A stretch of DNA of 64,000 nt from Phellopilus nigrolimitatus (Eukaryota > Basidiomycota > Agaricomycetes > Hymenochaetales > Hymenochaetaceae), in NCBI GenBank assembly GCA_021029095.1, contig JAJOHG010000059.1, forward strand, positions 1-64,000, read 5' to 3'. The notes under the pieces are model-generated. The model searched no databases and had not been told where the DNA came from. It saw only the letters and a list, made by a program, of their open reading frames with translations. Positions 2,803-61,155 of this stretch are shown here, in pieces. A program made the position numbers and the translations under genes. Numbering within the stretch: position 1 is the stretch's first letter; each line of letters begins with the position of its first letter.

Positions 2803-2849
2803 CGTCTTTTCTATTATAATAAATTTGTATTTAATTGTTTTAAAGAGCT

Positions 2850-3028
2850 ACAGGGAGCCGTGAACAACCCGTCGACCTGCTTGACCCGCACCCGCGGGTT
2901 TCTGAGGACCCGCGGATCCGTGTCCCAACGGATCCAGGTCAAGACGGGTCCGGGTCGAGGATTTTTCGTCACGGGTGACCCGCCAACGGGTCCGGTTCAA
3001 CCCACGGGTGGACTCGTGGTGAGCCCTA
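2850..3028 (-). mobile_element. hAT-family left end, inverted
   Basis: Read on the minus strand from 3028, this begins TAGGGCTCACCACGAGTC and continues with the same GACCCGG/ACCCGTG-rich subterminal pattern as 9672-9860 and 60682-60870, ending near the shared GTTCAC.GCTCCCTG block. It is a diverged copy of that left end with its body toward lower coordinates. No partner terminus with a matching target duplication is visible. Confidence 0.6.
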
Positions 3029-6337: not shown

Positions 6338-6605
6338 ACGAACTGCGTAATGAACACGTATTCATCATTATCTATGTATTCGTTGGGAGTTACTTTGCGG
6401 GCGTTATGGTCTGTCTCATGCTGACGCTTACTCCTGCGTGACCGCTGCCATTGCATTCTCCAGTCTGCTTGAGAAGTATATGGACCCAGCTGAGCCAGAA
6501 AAAAAATTGAAAGAGCGGAACCGGTGCCAGCAAACTTGCTAGCGCCACTCCCTCCAAAAATACTAACACGCAATGCCATGCAGGTGCACCAGTACGCGCC
6601 ATACA
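6338..6605. other. Non-coding spacer between transposon ends
   Basis: No supported gene. The stretch lies between the TA site of the Tc1-like element and a hAT-family right end, and is probably the interior of the older element into which the Tc1-like copy inserted. Confidence 0.4.
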
Positions 6606-6771
6606 AATAAATTTACATTTGCTACTCTTTCCTTGAAACCCGTGAACTACCTGCAGGTATTGATAAATCACAAATTCTCGACCCGGACCTGTGACTATCC
6701 GTGCATACAGATCTGTAGTCCGGGTTTGGTCACGGGTCTCCATGGGTTTTAAGGACTCGTGGTGAGCTCTA
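6606..6771 (+). mobile_element. hAT-family right end
   Basis: It contains the CCCGTGAACTACC..GGGTATT and TCCGTG.ATACAGATCTG.AGTCCGGG blocks found at 12475-12644 and 60990-61155, and ends GGACTCGTGGTGAGCTCTA at 6771, a variant of the family terminus. The flank is GCTTATAT. I find no left end with that octamer in the window. Confidence 0.6.
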
Positions 6772-9158: not shown

Positions 9159-10068
9159 CTAGCCCGGTGGCGACGGCTTCGCGTATCCGTGCACTTTCCC
9201 AGACCCAGATCTGGAGAATGCATCCCAGAATGCATCTTCTGCAGGACTGTCTGGCTTGCAAGCATTGCAAGCAGAGCATGCTGGGCCTGCTGCTGTTGTT
9301 ACACCCGCTGCTGCACGTGCTGCTGGCTCTTCTGATTCTGACTGCACTCTTTCTCGCCGATGATGTTTACGGGACGGTGGTGGGGACGGCAGGCCGTGGT
9401 ACGGATACGTGCCCATGCCCTTGCCAGCGAGAAGCACGCTGAACGGCACTTTGCTTGAGCCCGAAGTAAGAATTTGAAGACGCGCTGTTGAAGTAATGCG
9501 AGTGCAGCCCACCCGCGAGGCTGGAGAGGTTCGTGTTCGTGTTTGCGTGAGGGCTGCTCGTGGGCAACGTATTTGCTCTGTTCGGAGCAGGCGCATGTAC
9601 AAGCTACTGCCTGACCTGCATGGCAACGCGGTTCTAGAGCTGCATGCGATACGCATAGAGCGCCTTGAGTGTAGGGCATACCACGAGTCGATCCCCGGGT
9701 TGACCCGGACCTGTTGGCGGATCTACCCGTGACCAAAAAACCTCAACCCGGACCCGGCTTGACCTGGACCCGTTGGGACTCGGATTCACGGGTCACCGAA
9801 TTCCCACGGTTCCAGGTCACGGAGGTCACGGGTTTGTTCACAGCTCCCTGCGGGTCTTACACCAGCATTGTCATCCACCTCCCTTCGCGCGCATCACCTG
9901 AGTCTCCTGTCTTCCACTTCTCGAGCATAGCAAGCCCGCCGCTATCCATCCCGCATGTCCTCACCAAGCCTCATGGGCGCATGAAATCCGACCGACGCCG
10001 CGGAGAAGAAGACGAAGCTCGCCCTGCTCACGCGCCTCCGCTCGCTCAAGAAAACAACACGCCCCAAA

Positions 10069-10699
10069 ATGCCAGGCGTACAAGACGTTAGGTCCGTCAG
10101 CTGCCAAATGCAACAAGATTTTGGGAATTTATGTCAGCTTACACATTGTCCGTTGTCGACAGCGCGGACGTGTTCATCTCCGCACATGCGGCCCACCTCA
10201 AGTGTTCCGGCAAGCTCGAGGTTTTACGACACGGGCGGACATCGTCAAGACCGGACACTTCAAGGAGCTTGCTCCCTATGACCCTGACTGGTACTACACG
10301 CGCGCCGGTGCGTTCGAGTCAGCTCTCGTACATACGTATACGACTGAACTTCTCTTTCGCTGTGTTCATATCCGCATCAGTGTCTCTTACAGCTGCCGTC
10401 GCTTGTCACATCTACCTGCGCAAAAGCATCGACATCAGTGCACTCTCGAAACTGCACGGTGGACGCAACCGCCGCGGGAACCGGCCAAGCCACCACGCGG
10501 ACGCGAGCGCGAGCGTGCAGTGCAAGGTCTGCCTGTCGCTCGAGAAGATCGGCGTGCTCGAGCTGAGCGACAACGGCGGCCGGCACATCTCGCAGGACGG
10601 CCAGCGCGATCTCGACCACATTGCGACCGCCGTCGTCGAGCGGCGCGCGAGGCAGAGGAGGACGAGGGCGAGGATGAGGATGAAGAGCCGAAGGAGTGA
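10069..10699 (+). pseudogene. Captured ribosomal protein eS19 (RPS19) copy
   Basis: eS19 is a small-subunit ribosomal protein. The copy starts MPGVQDVR at 10069, then shows [20 protein letters not shown], and after a one-base frame change [20 protein letters not shown]. An intron-like stretch follows (GTGCGTTC near 10305 to TTACAG near 10391), then [47 protein letters not shown] and [16 protein letters not shown]. These are diagnostic eS19 blocks in the right order and nearly full length. The frameshift, a degenerate first segment and a changed C-terminal tail make it non-functional as it stands. Intron retention shows the copy was made from DNA. It lies entirely inside the hAT-like element. 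Confidence 0.85.
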
Positions 10700-11011
10700 G
10701 CATCGGCCTGTGGACAGGGTGCAGTGTGGTGATGGTGTTTTATTTTTTCCTCCGCTGGCCGTCACATGTTGTATGGGTATGTTCTCGCGCATAAAAGCTC
10801 TTTTTTTGTTTCCTCTTCACGCGCTCCCCCCTACACCCAGCCCGCTAACCTGAGGAACACACAAGAAGCCCAGCACGCGCAAGTCGACCCCCCACTCCTG
10901 GTACGCCGCGCTCCTTGCGCTGGGCGTGTGTCTACGCTCCCACTCAAGTTCCTGTGGGAGATGTACCGCACAGCGCTCGAGACGCTGAAAAACAACACCA
11001 CGCTCGTTATC

Positions 11012-12249
11012 AGATGCGCTTCAAGTTTCTCCGATTGTCTGCATCTATCTAAGTATTATACATCCGACAGCAAATTGCGCCGTATGTCAAGCTGGTGAGC
11101 CTTCAGGAGTTTTAAGAAAATAATTTTTGGACTGAACGCAGTGCATTCAGCTCGAATACAACAACATTGAGGGGATGATTTTGCTTTCTGAGCTATCGCG
11201 ACGTCGCATCCGCTCGATCCAGAAGCTCATCCACGTTGGACGCAACGAGGTCGTCGTCGTGATGCGTGTCGACAAAGAGAAGGGTGTGCCCCCAATACCA
11301 TTTATGTATTTAATTCACGTTTCTCACTTCGTCCTTTACAACTAGGCTACATCGATCTCTCGAAGAGGCGTGTCTCGCCAGAGGACATCACCAAATGCGA
11401 GGAGCGCTTCATGAAGCCCAAGACAGTCGCCTCCATCCTGCAGCACGTCGCATCGAAGCTTTCGTCGGAGGAGCTTGCGGCGGACGCAGCGGCGAAGGCA
11501 GAGGCAGGTACGGTTACGAGTGCAGAAGAGGAGGAGGAGGCCGCAGCCCAGGCAGGCGGCAGTGAGGAGGCCCGCTTGGAGTCTCTGTACGACCAAATCG
11601 TGTGGCCGCTGGGGAAGCAGTACGGGCACCCGTACGATGCCTTCAAGCTCGCGCTGACGTGCGTCTGCCCTCTTTCGAGACTCGTTCTTTAATGCTTACG
11701 CACATCTTTTAGGGAGTCCGAAAAAGTATTCGCCTCGCTGACACCAGCGCCGTCGGGCGCGACACTCGCGCAGCTGACGGCCACTATCGCGCGGCGATTG
11801 ACGCCACAACCAATCAAGTTGCGTGCGGATGTGGAGCTGACGTGCTACACGGAGGCGGGTATTGACGCGATCAAGCGCGCACTGCGCGCAGGGGAGGCAG
11901 CGAGCACGGAGGCTGTGCCAATTAAGGCGAAGCTCGTTGCGCCGCCGTTGTACGTGCTCGGGACGAATGCGACGGACAAGTATTTGGCGGTCGAGCGGCT
12001 AGAGCGGGCGATTGAGACGATACAAAGCACAATTGAGGGAGCGGGCGGGAATTTGGTCGTCAGGATGAAGGTGCGTCCCACTTTTCTTGCTCTTATATAC
12101 AGATAATGACTAATGACTCTGGATCTTTGGATACTTTAGCCAAAGACGATGTCGGAGACTGAGGAGCAAGACCTCGCACAGCTCATGGCGAAGGCCAACG
12201 CCAAAAATCAAGAAATGTCGGGCGCGAAGAAGAAGCTGAGGAGTAAAAA
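11012..12249 (+). pseudogene. Captured eIF2-alpha (SUI2-type) gene, N-terminus damaged
   Basis: eIF2-alpha is the regulatory subunit of the factor that delivers initiator tRNA to the ribosome. Exons carry QIAPYVKL, then [20 protein letters not shown] (the S1-type domain with the regulatory serine loop [10 protein letters not shown]), [72 protein letters not shown] and NQEMSGAKKK near the C-terminus. At least four introns with GT...AG ends are kept (near 11096-11140, 11282-11345, 11659-11711 and 12070-12140). The first exon is scrambled after MRF, so no intact start reaches the conserved part. From about residue 20 on, the exons look spliceable and open. It follows eS19 in the same orientation inside the transposon. 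Confidence 0.85.
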
Positions 12250-13255
12250 GGCTTTCCTGACATTTGCTGTATTTGCAAAAAATAAGATATATATTGTTCT
12301 GCAGTGTATTAGCATAAATCAGTGTACACGAGCAAAAATCCGAGAAAGAAATATTATAACAAAAAAGAAAAGAAAAGAAAGGAAAACTCGTTATGGGGAA
12401 GTGCGTTCGAGTGCCGCGTGTGTAAAGTTTGCATCTGAACTCAGACAATATAAAAATGAATGAACCACTCCTTAAATACCCGTGAACTACCCATGGGTAT
12501 TGAAAAATTGAAAAATCTCAACCCGGACCCGCAACAATCTGTTTCCCACGGATCACCCGTACACGGGTGATCCGTGAATGCAGATCTGTGGTCCGGGTCG
12601 GGTCATGGGTACCCACGAGTTCTAAAGACTCGTGGTATGCCCTACTTGAGTGTGAACAGGTTCACGTCCTAGAAGTTGTCGAACCCGCCCACGGCTCCGT
12701 TGAGCTGCGATGGGACCTGACCCATGAGCAGATTATTCTGATGTTGCTGCTGTTGCTGCTGGGCGCTTCCAGAACCGAAGACTTTGCTTGCTGCGACAGC
12801 AAGCGGATTTGGGATTTGGTTGAGCGTGGGATTCATGTTCTCGTTCGTCCTGTCCGCGTGAGAGTGCGCGTGAGCACCGAAAATCGTGTACAGGTGTGAC
12901 GCCGAAGCCTGTGGCACCCGCGTGGCCACCCCCAGAATGTGCCTGAACCGCCACCAACGGCCATGAGCCGCGACGACGTCGGAGGTCCTCATGCGTGTTC
13001 GGCTTGATTACGGAGCTTGAAGTCCCTGGGGAGCGAAGGAGGAGAGCGGAGAGAGCGGGCTGAGCGGTGCAGGCGGCAGCGACATTGGCAAGGCCCGGCC
13101 TTCGAGAATCGCCTTCTTGAGCGCGGCGACCTCCTGCCGGAGCGCGTTATTCTCTGACTTTGTGCTGCCGGGCTCCAAACAGATTGCATCGATCAGTCGA
13201 TCACGCTCTGCGATGTCGCCCTCAAGTGTGTGGATGTATTTCTAATTAAAGTGAA

Positions 13256-13760
13256 TTATAAACAATGAAAGATGAATTTGTAATGTGACATACCCCTTCT
13301 CACATGGAGATTACGCACGAGCGCGTTGGGTAGCCAGCCGTACTTCCACCCACCCGCGAGCCACTCGAGCGTCTCGACAGACTCTGCCTGCACCATCGAG
13401 CGTAAAGGGAGGAACACCGGGTAGCCCTCGACACTCGTTGAACATAGTTCTCGAAGCATGAAATCGCGGTAGTGCAATAGTTGACCGTGAATCACAAACC
13501 CGTTGAGCACCGAAAGTCCGGTTTGCATATTTGAGCGATCATGGCCAAAACTGCGGGAATTTCTTATCAGATACAGTACGTCGGAAATAAGTTAATATAC
13601 GTACCTCGTAGCGGAAAATCGATTGAAGTTAAAACACCGTGAGTGGCTGCTCTAGACTTGATCACTTCCCAAATGTTGTTGAATCTATGTGGTCGCAATG
13701 ATTCGTCGCTCAGCTTATCGATATGCTTGAGCAATTCCGCCAGTAAAAGTGGTGGAAACT
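13256..13760 (-). other. Unidentified minus-strand gene fragment
   Basis: A frame of 90 codons (13528 to 13256) reads HGQLLHYRDFMLREL, SVETLEWLAGGWKYGWLP and NALVRNLHVRRG, and ends at a GTATGT donor opposite a TTAG acceptor next to the bZIP exon at 13241. Composition looks coding, but I do not recognise a family. It may be spliced onto the bZIP exon by chance of the mosaic. Confidence 0.3.
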
Positions 13761-14741: not shown

Positions 14742-15019
14742 TATTGAATATAGTATGATCTTGGACACTTTATTTCCTTTTATTATTTTGCGTACCAGGT
14801 GACTTGAACTCCTGACTTGTTGTTCTGCGTCACCTAACATGTTGATGTATTACATAATGCTTCCCTTGAAGCGGCAGAGTCCATGGATGGTGCTCTCTAT
14901 CTTTTGCACTCATCCATTGGACTCAGGCATGTTTAGTTTCCATAATATATCATCTTTTGCACTCATCCATTGGACTCAGGTCACTGTCTGTGTTTGTTGT
15001 GAGACCACTCCGCCTCACA
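14742..15019 (+). mobile_element. Solo copia LTR
   Basis: A 278-bp LTR runs from TATTGAATATAG to CCGCCTCACA and is flanked by exact 5-bp duplications CGCGT (14737-14741 and 15020-15024). No internal sequence remains, so it is the product of LTR-LTR recombination. It inserted into the gene-fragment mosaic after that mosaic formed. Confidence 0.9.
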
Positions 15020-15039
15020 CGCGTCGCCCATGGAGGGAA

Positions 15040-60681: not shown

Positions 60682-61155
60682 TAGGGCATACCACGAGTCG
60701 ATCCCCGGGTTGACCCGGACCTGTTGGCGGATCTACCCGTGACCCAAAATCCTCAACCCGGACCCGGCTTGACCTGGACCCGTTGGGACACGGATCTACG
60801 GGTCACCAAATTCCCACGGTTCCAGGTCACGGAGGTCACGGGTTTGTTCACAGCTCCCTGCGGGTCTTAACTGACTACACATATCATATAAAATTATTTT
60901 AGGTTGTTGAATGAATAAGTTACAAGTATACAAGATGATACATACAACATATGTACAATCTACAAATGAATGAACCAGCGCAAAATATACCTATGAACTA
61001 CCCACGGGTATTGTAAAAGCACAAATTCTCAACCCGGACCCGTGACAATCTGTTTCCCACGGATCACCCGTGTACGGGTGATCCGTGAATACGGATCTGC
61101 AGTCCAGGTCGGGTCACGGGTTTCCACGGGTTCTAGGGACTCGTGGTATGCCCTA
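60682..61155. mobile_element. 474-bp hAT MITE, short form of the eS19/eIF2-alpha carrier
   Basis: It begins TAGGGCATACCACGAGTC and ends in the near-inverse, flanked by the exact octamer GCAGATAT (60674-60681 and 61156-61163). The unoccupied site is present in the other copia leaders as a single GCAGATAT. The first 190 bp match 9672-9860 closely and the last 190 bp match 12465-12644, with about 95 bp of unrelated AT-rich sequence between. No coding capacity. Confidence 0.9.

What the first reader, a model, noticed from the sequence alone, without database searches (positions are those of the whole stretch)
9664..12652. Pack-type hAT-like transposon carrying two translation genes
Seen: 18-bp perfect inverted termini (TAGGGCATACCACGAGTC), exact CTTGAGTG duplications, and a bZIP gene remnant whose two halves join when the element is removed. 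Inside are eS19 and eIF2-alpha copies, same strand, introns kept, and no transposase. Known: Pack-MULEs in plants and Pack-TIR elements carry host gene pieces; I know of few fungal hAT cases with two genes and such clear borders. Inferred: DNA-level capture mobilised in trans. The eIF2-alpha part keeps the [10 protein letters not shown] regulatory loop, so an expressed fragment could matter to the cell.
Basis: partly seen in the sequence, partly recalled or inferred. Interest (0 to 1): 0.9.

Follow-up and report, generated by a model that had tools for sequence, protein, structure and literature searches.

The report
Fungal jumping DNA carrying host-gene pieces
A cut-and-paste jumping element in what looks like a mushroom-type fungus has packed pieces of four unrelated host genes, three of them for making proteins, between its ends, and it belongs to a family whose members carry different, sometimes swapped, gene pieces.

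Summary
The finding is real and its core reading holds. Window 9672-12644 is a 2973-bp non-autonomous hAT element with perfect 18-bp TIRs and 8-bp TSDs. A 97%-identical counterpart on contig C69 is empty, with one CTTGAGTG. The TIR occurs 164 times in the assembly at up to 1 mismatch, control 0. Of 33 TIR pairs in the sequence I fetched, 31 have perfect, all-different 8-bp TSDs; the other two are an inverted pair with exchanged flanks. That pair (6592 bp, identical) shares the ends and has a modelled 770-aa hAT transposase: a candidate trans partner. Introns are kept, so capture was from DNA. Other copies carry CNOT1, carbamoyl-phosphate synthase, an AMP-binding enzyme, Argonaute PIWI and glycyl-tRNA synthetase pieces. 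eS19 is frameshifted; eIF2alpha lacks its start but keeps 296 codons. Pack-hATs and fungal hAT transduplication are known; this is a new variant. Expression and function are untested.

The parts
9664..9671 (.). left target-site duplication CTTGAGTG
   Evidence: single copy at the empty site on C69
9672..9689 (+). left terminal inverted repeat, 18 bp (19 with the adjoining base)
9672..9859 (+). left conserved end (about 188 bp) with subterminal ACCCG/CGGGT repeats
   Evidence: 79.6-97% identity with W1 in the family members compared; ACCCGG/ACCCGT about 37-40 fold more frequent in ends than interiors of 15 elements, words picked after the fact and ends homologous
9860..10047 (+). captured piece 1, from an unnamed gene on contig C168 (112797-112980)
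   Evidence: 85% identity
10045..10816 (+). captured piece 2, eS19 gene with introns and 3' flank; frame broken by indels; parent C633:11262-12059 and its counterpart C33
   Evidence: 88-89%, 91.4-91.5% with gaps left out; PF01090; left junction ambiguous within about 10033-10047
10812..10926 (+). captured piece 1 continued, C168:113026-113147, on the far side of eS19
   Evidence: 79% identity
10943..11080 (+). captured piece 3, eIF3a exon ends and intron; parent C90:294924-295068
   Evidence: 83% identity; protein-level parent C90:294945-295247; PF22591 for the longer piece in C83
11081..12443 (+). captured piece 4, eIF2alpha from about codon 28 through the 3' flank, introns kept; parent C610 (start codon and first exon present) and C443
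   Evidence: 94% and, for the 3' stretch, 86-91% to C610, 97% to C443; PF07541 and S1; 296 codons open
12445..12644 (+). right conserved end (about 160-200 bp)
12627..12644 (-). right terminal inverted repeat
12645..12652 (.). right target-site duplication CTTGAGTG
12653..13316 (-). larger half of the interrupted bZIP pseudogene
   Evidence: 85% to the C614 paralogue, which matches bZIP_1 when two exons are joined
9282..9671 (-). other half of the interrupted bZIP pseudogene (extent of the match to the empty site)
   Evidence: 97% to C69

Best explanation
A non-autonomous hAT (Pack-hAT) element. Fixed ends of about 190 and 160 bp carry the TIRs and ACCCG-type subterminal repeats. Its interior is a patchwork of four host genes copied as genomic DNA, in steps: pieces of a C168 gene with an eS19 copy between them, an eIF3a piece, then, in this branch only, eIF2alpha in place of most of the eIF3a part. 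Shown: the borders, TSDs, empty site, parents on separate contigs, breakpoints shared between copies that differ further in, and a hAT transposase reading frame in an element with the same ends. Inferred: the order of capture; that this transposase or a relative moves the element in trans; and that the pieces were acquired by template-switching repair of breaks or excision gaps inside the element. Most likely the cargo is a passenger, not a functional gene.
For: TIR/TSD. Empty site on C69. 164 TIR matches, 0 for the reversed control. Second full copy C255, about 92%, with its own TSD AACCCTAT. Parents on C168, C633/C33, C90 and C610/C443. Introns retained. eS19 indels absent from the parents are shared by W1, C255 and C83, and one of them by C43, pointing to one capture, while the sequence after eS19 differs: eIF2alpha in W1/C255, long eIF3a in C83 and two C625 copies, eIF3a then Argonaute in C43. 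eIF2alpha is 96.8% like C443 whereas eS19 is 91.4% like C633, as expected if eS19 came first. The C346/C500 element joins stretches matching four unlinked loci end to end; C38/C379 joins two plus a stretch shared with C20/C631. Transposase model: 11 exons, GT-AG introns, 770 aa, PF05699 E 1.6e-9, four PDB transposase sequences, two labelled Hermes, at E 5e-6 to 3e-5; C423 ends 84-85% like W1 over about 170 bp each.
Against: No transposition was observed. C255 is only 90.9% like W1 in eIF2alpha although 95.4% in eS19, which a simple single-capture history does not predict (gene conversion or uneven decay is needed). Shared bases at the junctions are few, judged by eye and not tested. Other related transposase loci exist, so the partner is not proven to be C423, and its gene model has no transcript support. 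PF14372 is below its cut-off and no stretch of the Hermes matches passes alone. eIF2alpha parents C610 and C443 are 89.9% alike over 1.8 kb, so the source copy is not fixed.
Confidence: 0.93

Rival explanations
1. Pieces were acquired by insertion of neighbouring family members followed by joint mobilisation (the tandem-insertion model proposed for plant Pack-TYPE elements), not by gap repair.
For: The C605 3227-bp element holds an internal copy of part of the right end (2135-2233 matching W1 2807-2903). The C434 4259-bp element contains a multi-copy unit of its own with sister-type ends. The model is described for plant Pack-TYPEs (PMC8903248, passages).
Against: No internal TIR remnant in W1 at up to 3 mismatches. 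eS19 sits between two C168 pieces with only about 45 bp of the parent missing between them. C346/C500 joins four unlinked loci end to end.
Confidence: 0.25
2. The cargo came through mRNA, as proposed for histone H3 in fungal hATs.
For: Precedent in Dothideomycetes (PMC6710886, passages).
Against: Intron sequence aligns between W1 and the eS19 parent and the first eIF2alpha intron is kept; DNA past the eIF2alpha stop is included to 12443.
Confidence: 0.02
3. The eIF2alpha piece is an expressed, selected product (truncated decoy substrate or source of small RNAs).
For: 296 codons remain open in W1; dN and dS against C610 are 0.0212 and 0.1354, against C443 0.0100 and 0.0890 (NG86); the [10 protein letters not shown] loop is intact.
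Against: Missing start and about 27 codons. In the sister copy C255 the aligned coding region is frameshifted with stops. The parents already differ at 10 synonymous and 0 other sites over 223 codons, so much of the synonymous change may lie on the parent side. The eIF3a splice donor before it reads AT instead of GT in W1. No RNA data.
Confidence: 0.07
4. A longer segmental duplication that happens to be flanked by TIR-like sequence.
For: None found.
Against: Parents on four contigs; TIR-to-TIR borders coincide with the TSDs and with the empty site.
Confidence: 0.01

Closest known systems
Pack-hAT / Pack-TYPE elements of maize and rice (PMC8903248, passages read)
   Same: TIR-bounded hATs with 8-bp TSD holding host-gene DNA; some groups multi-copy.
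   Different: Fungus; the element and some sisters are patchworks of several unlinked genes, with cargo swapped between the same ends visible within one genome.
hAT transduplication of histone H3 in Pyrenophora tritici-repentis (PMC3538342) and Pseudocercospora fijiensis (PMC6710886), passages read
   Same: Fungal hAT with an amplified host gene between the TIRs (8-bp TSD and 20-bp TIR in P. fijiensis).
   Different: There the element also carries transposase or hAT-domain sequence and one host gene, H3, reported for P. fijiensis as without intron; here there is no transposase inside, several different genes, introns kept, and a basidiomycete-type lineage judging by transposase relatives.
Pack-TIRs of animals, including Pack-hAT-N8_XT (PMC8277862, passages read)
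   Same: Gap filling with template switching proposed for single-copy cases; [quoted passage not shown]
   Different: Duplicated regions reported there have a median of 224 bp; here about 1.4 kb of eIF2alpha plus pieces of three other genes in one element.
Pack-MULEs (recalled)
   Same: Chimeric gene-fragment cargo.
   Different: Mutator-like elements make about 9-bp TSDs (recalled); here the 31 perfect TSDs are 8 bp.

Membership tests
hAT superfamily | 8-bp target-site duplication | tested here: met
   31 of 33 TIR pairs in fetched sequence have perfect 8-bp TSDs, all different; the two C423 copies match at 6 of 8, with reciprocally exchanged flanks giving two more by inference. One search had used a filter of at least 6 of 8; one search repeats the count without it. 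Most regions were fetched because their TIRs pair; further listed pairs (such as C112:36996, C168:82358, C500:2585) were not fetched.
hAT superfamily | short TIRs | tested here: met
   18-19 bp perfect; no mismatch in any of the 33 pairs
hAT superfamily | hAT transposase encoded by an element with the same ends | tested here: met
   C423 6592-bp copies; PF05699 over its cut-off; PF14372 only below its cut-off; weak PDB matches to Hermes
hAT superfamily | excision and insertion by that transposase | not testable with these tools
   needs an excision assay
Pack-TYPE (Pack-hAT) element | no transposase coding inside | tested here: met
   interior mostly accounted for by host-gene pieces; C544 not among the 96 transposase matches (58 of 79 candidates scored)
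Pack-TYPE (Pack-hAT) element | coding pieces with parental genes elsewhere | tested here: met
   parents on C168, C633/C33, C90, C610/C443
Pack-TYPE (Pack-hAT) element | mobile | tested here: met
   empty site and second full copy C255 with a different TSD; past mobility only
fungal hAT histone-H3 transduplication | histone H3 cargo | tested here: not met
   cargo is eS19, eIF3a, eIF2alpha and a C168 gene; introns kept
Pack-MULE | about 9-bp TSD (recalled) | tested here: not met
   8 bp

The most novel reading that the evidence does not exclude
This genome runs an ongoing exon-shuffling machine built on one hAT family: the same two ends are reused while the interior is rewritten again and again by copying stretches of unlinked, often protein-synthesis or other housekeeping genes, including new pieces placed inside older ones, and the chimaeras are then spread by an intact hAT transposase still present in the genome. 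A piece of Argonaute in one copy raises the further possibility that some cargo feeds back on silencing.
Probability: 0.5. Interest if true: 0.78.

Novelty: new variant of a known kind. Interest (0 to 1): 0.68.

Why it matters
Gene-piece capture by cut-and-paste elements is described in plants and in animals; in fungi the cases I found are histone H3 in hATs and one cargo in a Tc1/mariner element (PMC3538342, PMC6710886, passages). Here one assembly holds the donor genes, a graded series of chimaeras, an empty site and a transposase candidate, so how such elements pick up and exchange gene pieces can be tested directly in a compact genome. It also warns annotators: pieces of eIF2alpha, Argonaute or CNOT1 inside these elements are not extra gene copies.

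Tried and rejected
The 4259-bp C434 element was first counted as a simple carrier of EF-G; one search shows that part is a unit of its own, multi-copy with sister-type ends, and its parent is unresolved. The C38 element was first counted as a mosaic of three loci; the third, C20/C631, also carries the carbamoyl-phosphate synthase piece, and C20 has a TIR nearby, so I count two. Megablast of the element against plasmids: no match. Parents of the glycyl-tRNA synthetase, coatomer, FHA and EF-G cargo were not established. Literature: 'Pack-TIR' with 'fungi' 0 papers; 'Pack-MULE' with 'basidiomycete' and 'gene fragments' 0; 'Pack-hAT' 2 papers, plant and animal; 'transduplication' with 'basidiomycete' 13 listings, none opened. 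Papers read in passages came (read); one search listed 4. The library lacks most subscription journals, so absence from print is not shown. The coatomer query was a hand-typed blend of C57, C357 and C18 letters; one search repeats it with the C18 frame as it stands (coatomer beta', E 4.2e-17).
Full report
Check of the observation. The element runs from 9672 to 12644 (2973 bp). Its TIRs are perfect over 18 bp (19 with the adjoining base) and it is flanked by CTTGAGTG on both sides. In 64 kb the TIR pattern at up to 3 mismatches occurs 6 times against 0.05 expected; two of these belong to a 474-bp miniature of the same family at 60682-61155 and two are ends of a sister type.

Proof of insertion. 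The right flank finds contig C69 at 97% over its whole length. Joining the two window flanks in a script gives a 95% match to C69 across the junction with one CTTGAGTG and no element. C69 is an allele or a recent paralogue; in the locus held it matches the window only from 9282 rightwards, so I do not insist on allele. A more distant paralogue on C614 is also without the element (81% over the joined flanks). The flanking gene is a bZIP gene: two joined exons of the C614 paralogue match bZIP_1 at 1.6e-9, though the window remnant alone gives no family. In window and C69 the frame stops at the same place beside the site, so it was a pseudogene already.

Family. In the 56.4-Mb assembly the TIR at up to 1 mismatch occurs 79 + 85 times and the reversed pattern 0 times; the first 100 places are listed. 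The sequence I fetched holds 33 TIR pairs: 31 have perfect 8-bp TSDs, all different, and two, on C423, match at 6 of 8; fetched locus L041 also holds two unpaired TIRs. Several listed pairs were not fetched. Of 31 element sequences compared (without the 4259-bp C434 element and with one C423 copy) there are 15 clusters at 70% coverage: one of miniatures (5 copies), C423, and 13 with other interiors. The ends (about 190 bp left, 160 bp right) are shared at 79.6-97% with W1. Six-base words such as ACCCGG and ACCCGT are about 37-40 fold more frequent in the ends than in the interiors of 15 elements; the words were picked after the fact and the ends are homologous, so this describes subterminal repeats, as hATs have (recalled), and tests nothing.

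Partner. The two 6592-bp copies on C423 are inverted to each other and identical at 6592 of 6592 positions. Copy 1 is flanked by GCTCAAAG and GCTCCAGG; copy 2 by their complements in the same order, which is what recombination between two inverted copies, inverting the 380-bp spacer, would leave. Their ends are 84-85% like W1 over about 170 bp on both sides. Eleven exons with GT-AG introns give a 770-aa protein (my model, no transcript evidence; one intron of 138 bp) with PF05699 above its cut-off and PF14372 below. The PDB matches are four transposase sequences, two labelled Hermes, E 5e-6 to 3e-5, with no stretch passing alone. 116 database proteins match at E up to 1e-3, the nearest named ones from Antrodiella, Phanerochaete, Coprinopsis and Trametes, which suggests a mushroom-forming basidiomycete host. 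Further transposase-like loci, most exons at roughly 50-90% identity, lie on C4, C488, C603, C290, C622, C346, C611 and C25.

Cargo of the window element. A genome search with 9860-12480 gave 30 matches. From left to right: 9860-10047 matches C168:112797-112980 (85%); 10045-10816 matches eS19 on C633 and C33 (88-89%); 10812-10926 matches C168:113026-113147 (79%); 10943-11080 matches C90:294924-295068 (83%), which a protein search shows to be an eIF3a-like gene (PF22591); 11081-12443 matches C610 (94%, then 91% for the 3' stretch) and in part C443 (97%). C610 has an upstream eIF2alpha exon with a start codon (read by eye). So the cargo is four genes from four contigs, with eS19 between two C168 pieces. 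C633 and C33 are 95.6% alike over 3.8 kb, as two haplotypes would be.

Order of events. W1, C255 and C83 share eS19 indels that the parents lack, and C43 shares one of them, so one capture probably underlies them. C83 and two C625 copies continue into a longer eIF3a piece; C43 continues into eIF3a and then an Argonaute PIWI piece (PF02171, E 5e-44; Argonaute-like matches at 86-89% on C390 and C90); W1 and C255 switch to eIF2alpha. eIF2alpha in W1 is closer to its source (96.8% to C443) than eS19 is (91.4% to C633), as expected for a later addition. Against a tidy history, C255 is 95.4% like W1 in eS19 but 90.9% in eIF2alpha.

Other cargo. C357: CNOT1 (PF16415, E 1.5e-51), matching C511 and C174 at 93-95% and set between stretches shared with C18, C24 and C606 copies. 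C38 and C379: carbamoyl-phosphate synthase (PF25596, PF02786), with 1294 bases matching C2 (94%), 124 matching C625 and C604 (93-95%), and a last stretch shared with C20/C631. C346 and C500: stretches matching C101 (90%), C13 (95%), C159/C223 (81%) and C235 (92%) end to end; the element includes an AMP-binding piece (PF00501) and a glucanase-like piece (PDB match E 1.4e-13). C90-type (cluster of 6; tested in one): glycyl-tRNA synthetase (PDB match E 5e-17). C57: FHA (PF00498). C18: coatomer beta' (PDB match E 4e-17). Protein-synthesis genes are frequent among those identified, but I made no test of over-representation.

Coding state. eS19 is frameshifted in W1. eIF2alpha lacks about the first 27 codons but 296 codons are open; against C610 there are 26 synonymous and 15 other differences, against C443 14 and 5 over 223 codons, and between the parents 10 and 0. 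Because the parents vary so much at silent sites, these numbers do not show selection on W1. C255's copy is frameshifted.

Mechanism. Shown: borders, empty site, many insertions, DNA-level copying with introns, several parents per element, nesting. Inferred: template-switching repair of breaks or gaps inside the element followed by transposition in trans. The rival of joint mobilisation of neighbouring insertions may explain C605 (internal stretch of right end) and the C434 composite, so both routes may operate.

Prior work. Passages only were read. PMC3538342 reports the first fungal transduplication, histone H3 in hAT elements with transposase, and a Tc1/mariner case. PMC6710886 extends H3 capture to P. 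fijiensis and infers capture of a transcript or retrocopy. PMC8903248 shows Pack-hATs in maize and rice. PMC8277862 shows animal Pack-TIRs and a template-switching model. My searches found no fungal Pack-hAT with several genes, within an open-licence library. Verdict: new variant of a known kind.

Noticed in passing
window 60682-61155: 474-bp miniature of the same hAT family with TSD GCAGATAT; 97-99% like copies on C1 and C625.
   Followed up: partly
window 2843-3028 and 6630-6771: Solo ends of a sister type with terminus TAGGGCTCACCACGAGTC or one mismatch from it; the first is 95% like the end of a multi-copy unit with EF-G sequence found on C71, C96 and C290.
   Followed up: partly
window about 14743-15020: 278-bp stretch absent from the C69 counterpart and 97% like a stretch on C2; looks like another polymorphic insertion.
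   Followed up: partly
G000:C423:5721-19284: Two inverted, identical 6592-bp transposase-bearing elements 380 bp apart with exchanged target-site flanks, the mark of an inversion between them.
   Followed up: yes
L049 (G000:C43:55230-57580): Family member carrying eS19, eIF3a and an Argonaute PIWI piece; Argonaute-like matches are spread over many contigs.
   Followed up: partly
window 12653-13316: The bZIP gene region has at least a dozen relatives at 77-97% elsewhere in the assembly, so this bZIP is itself a repeated family.
   Followed up: no
L020 (G000:C146:62825 onward): Relic with a TIR 4 mismatches off, the left end, the C168 piece, eS19 and part of eIF3a at 80-88%: possibly an older stage of the chimaera.
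   Followed up: partly
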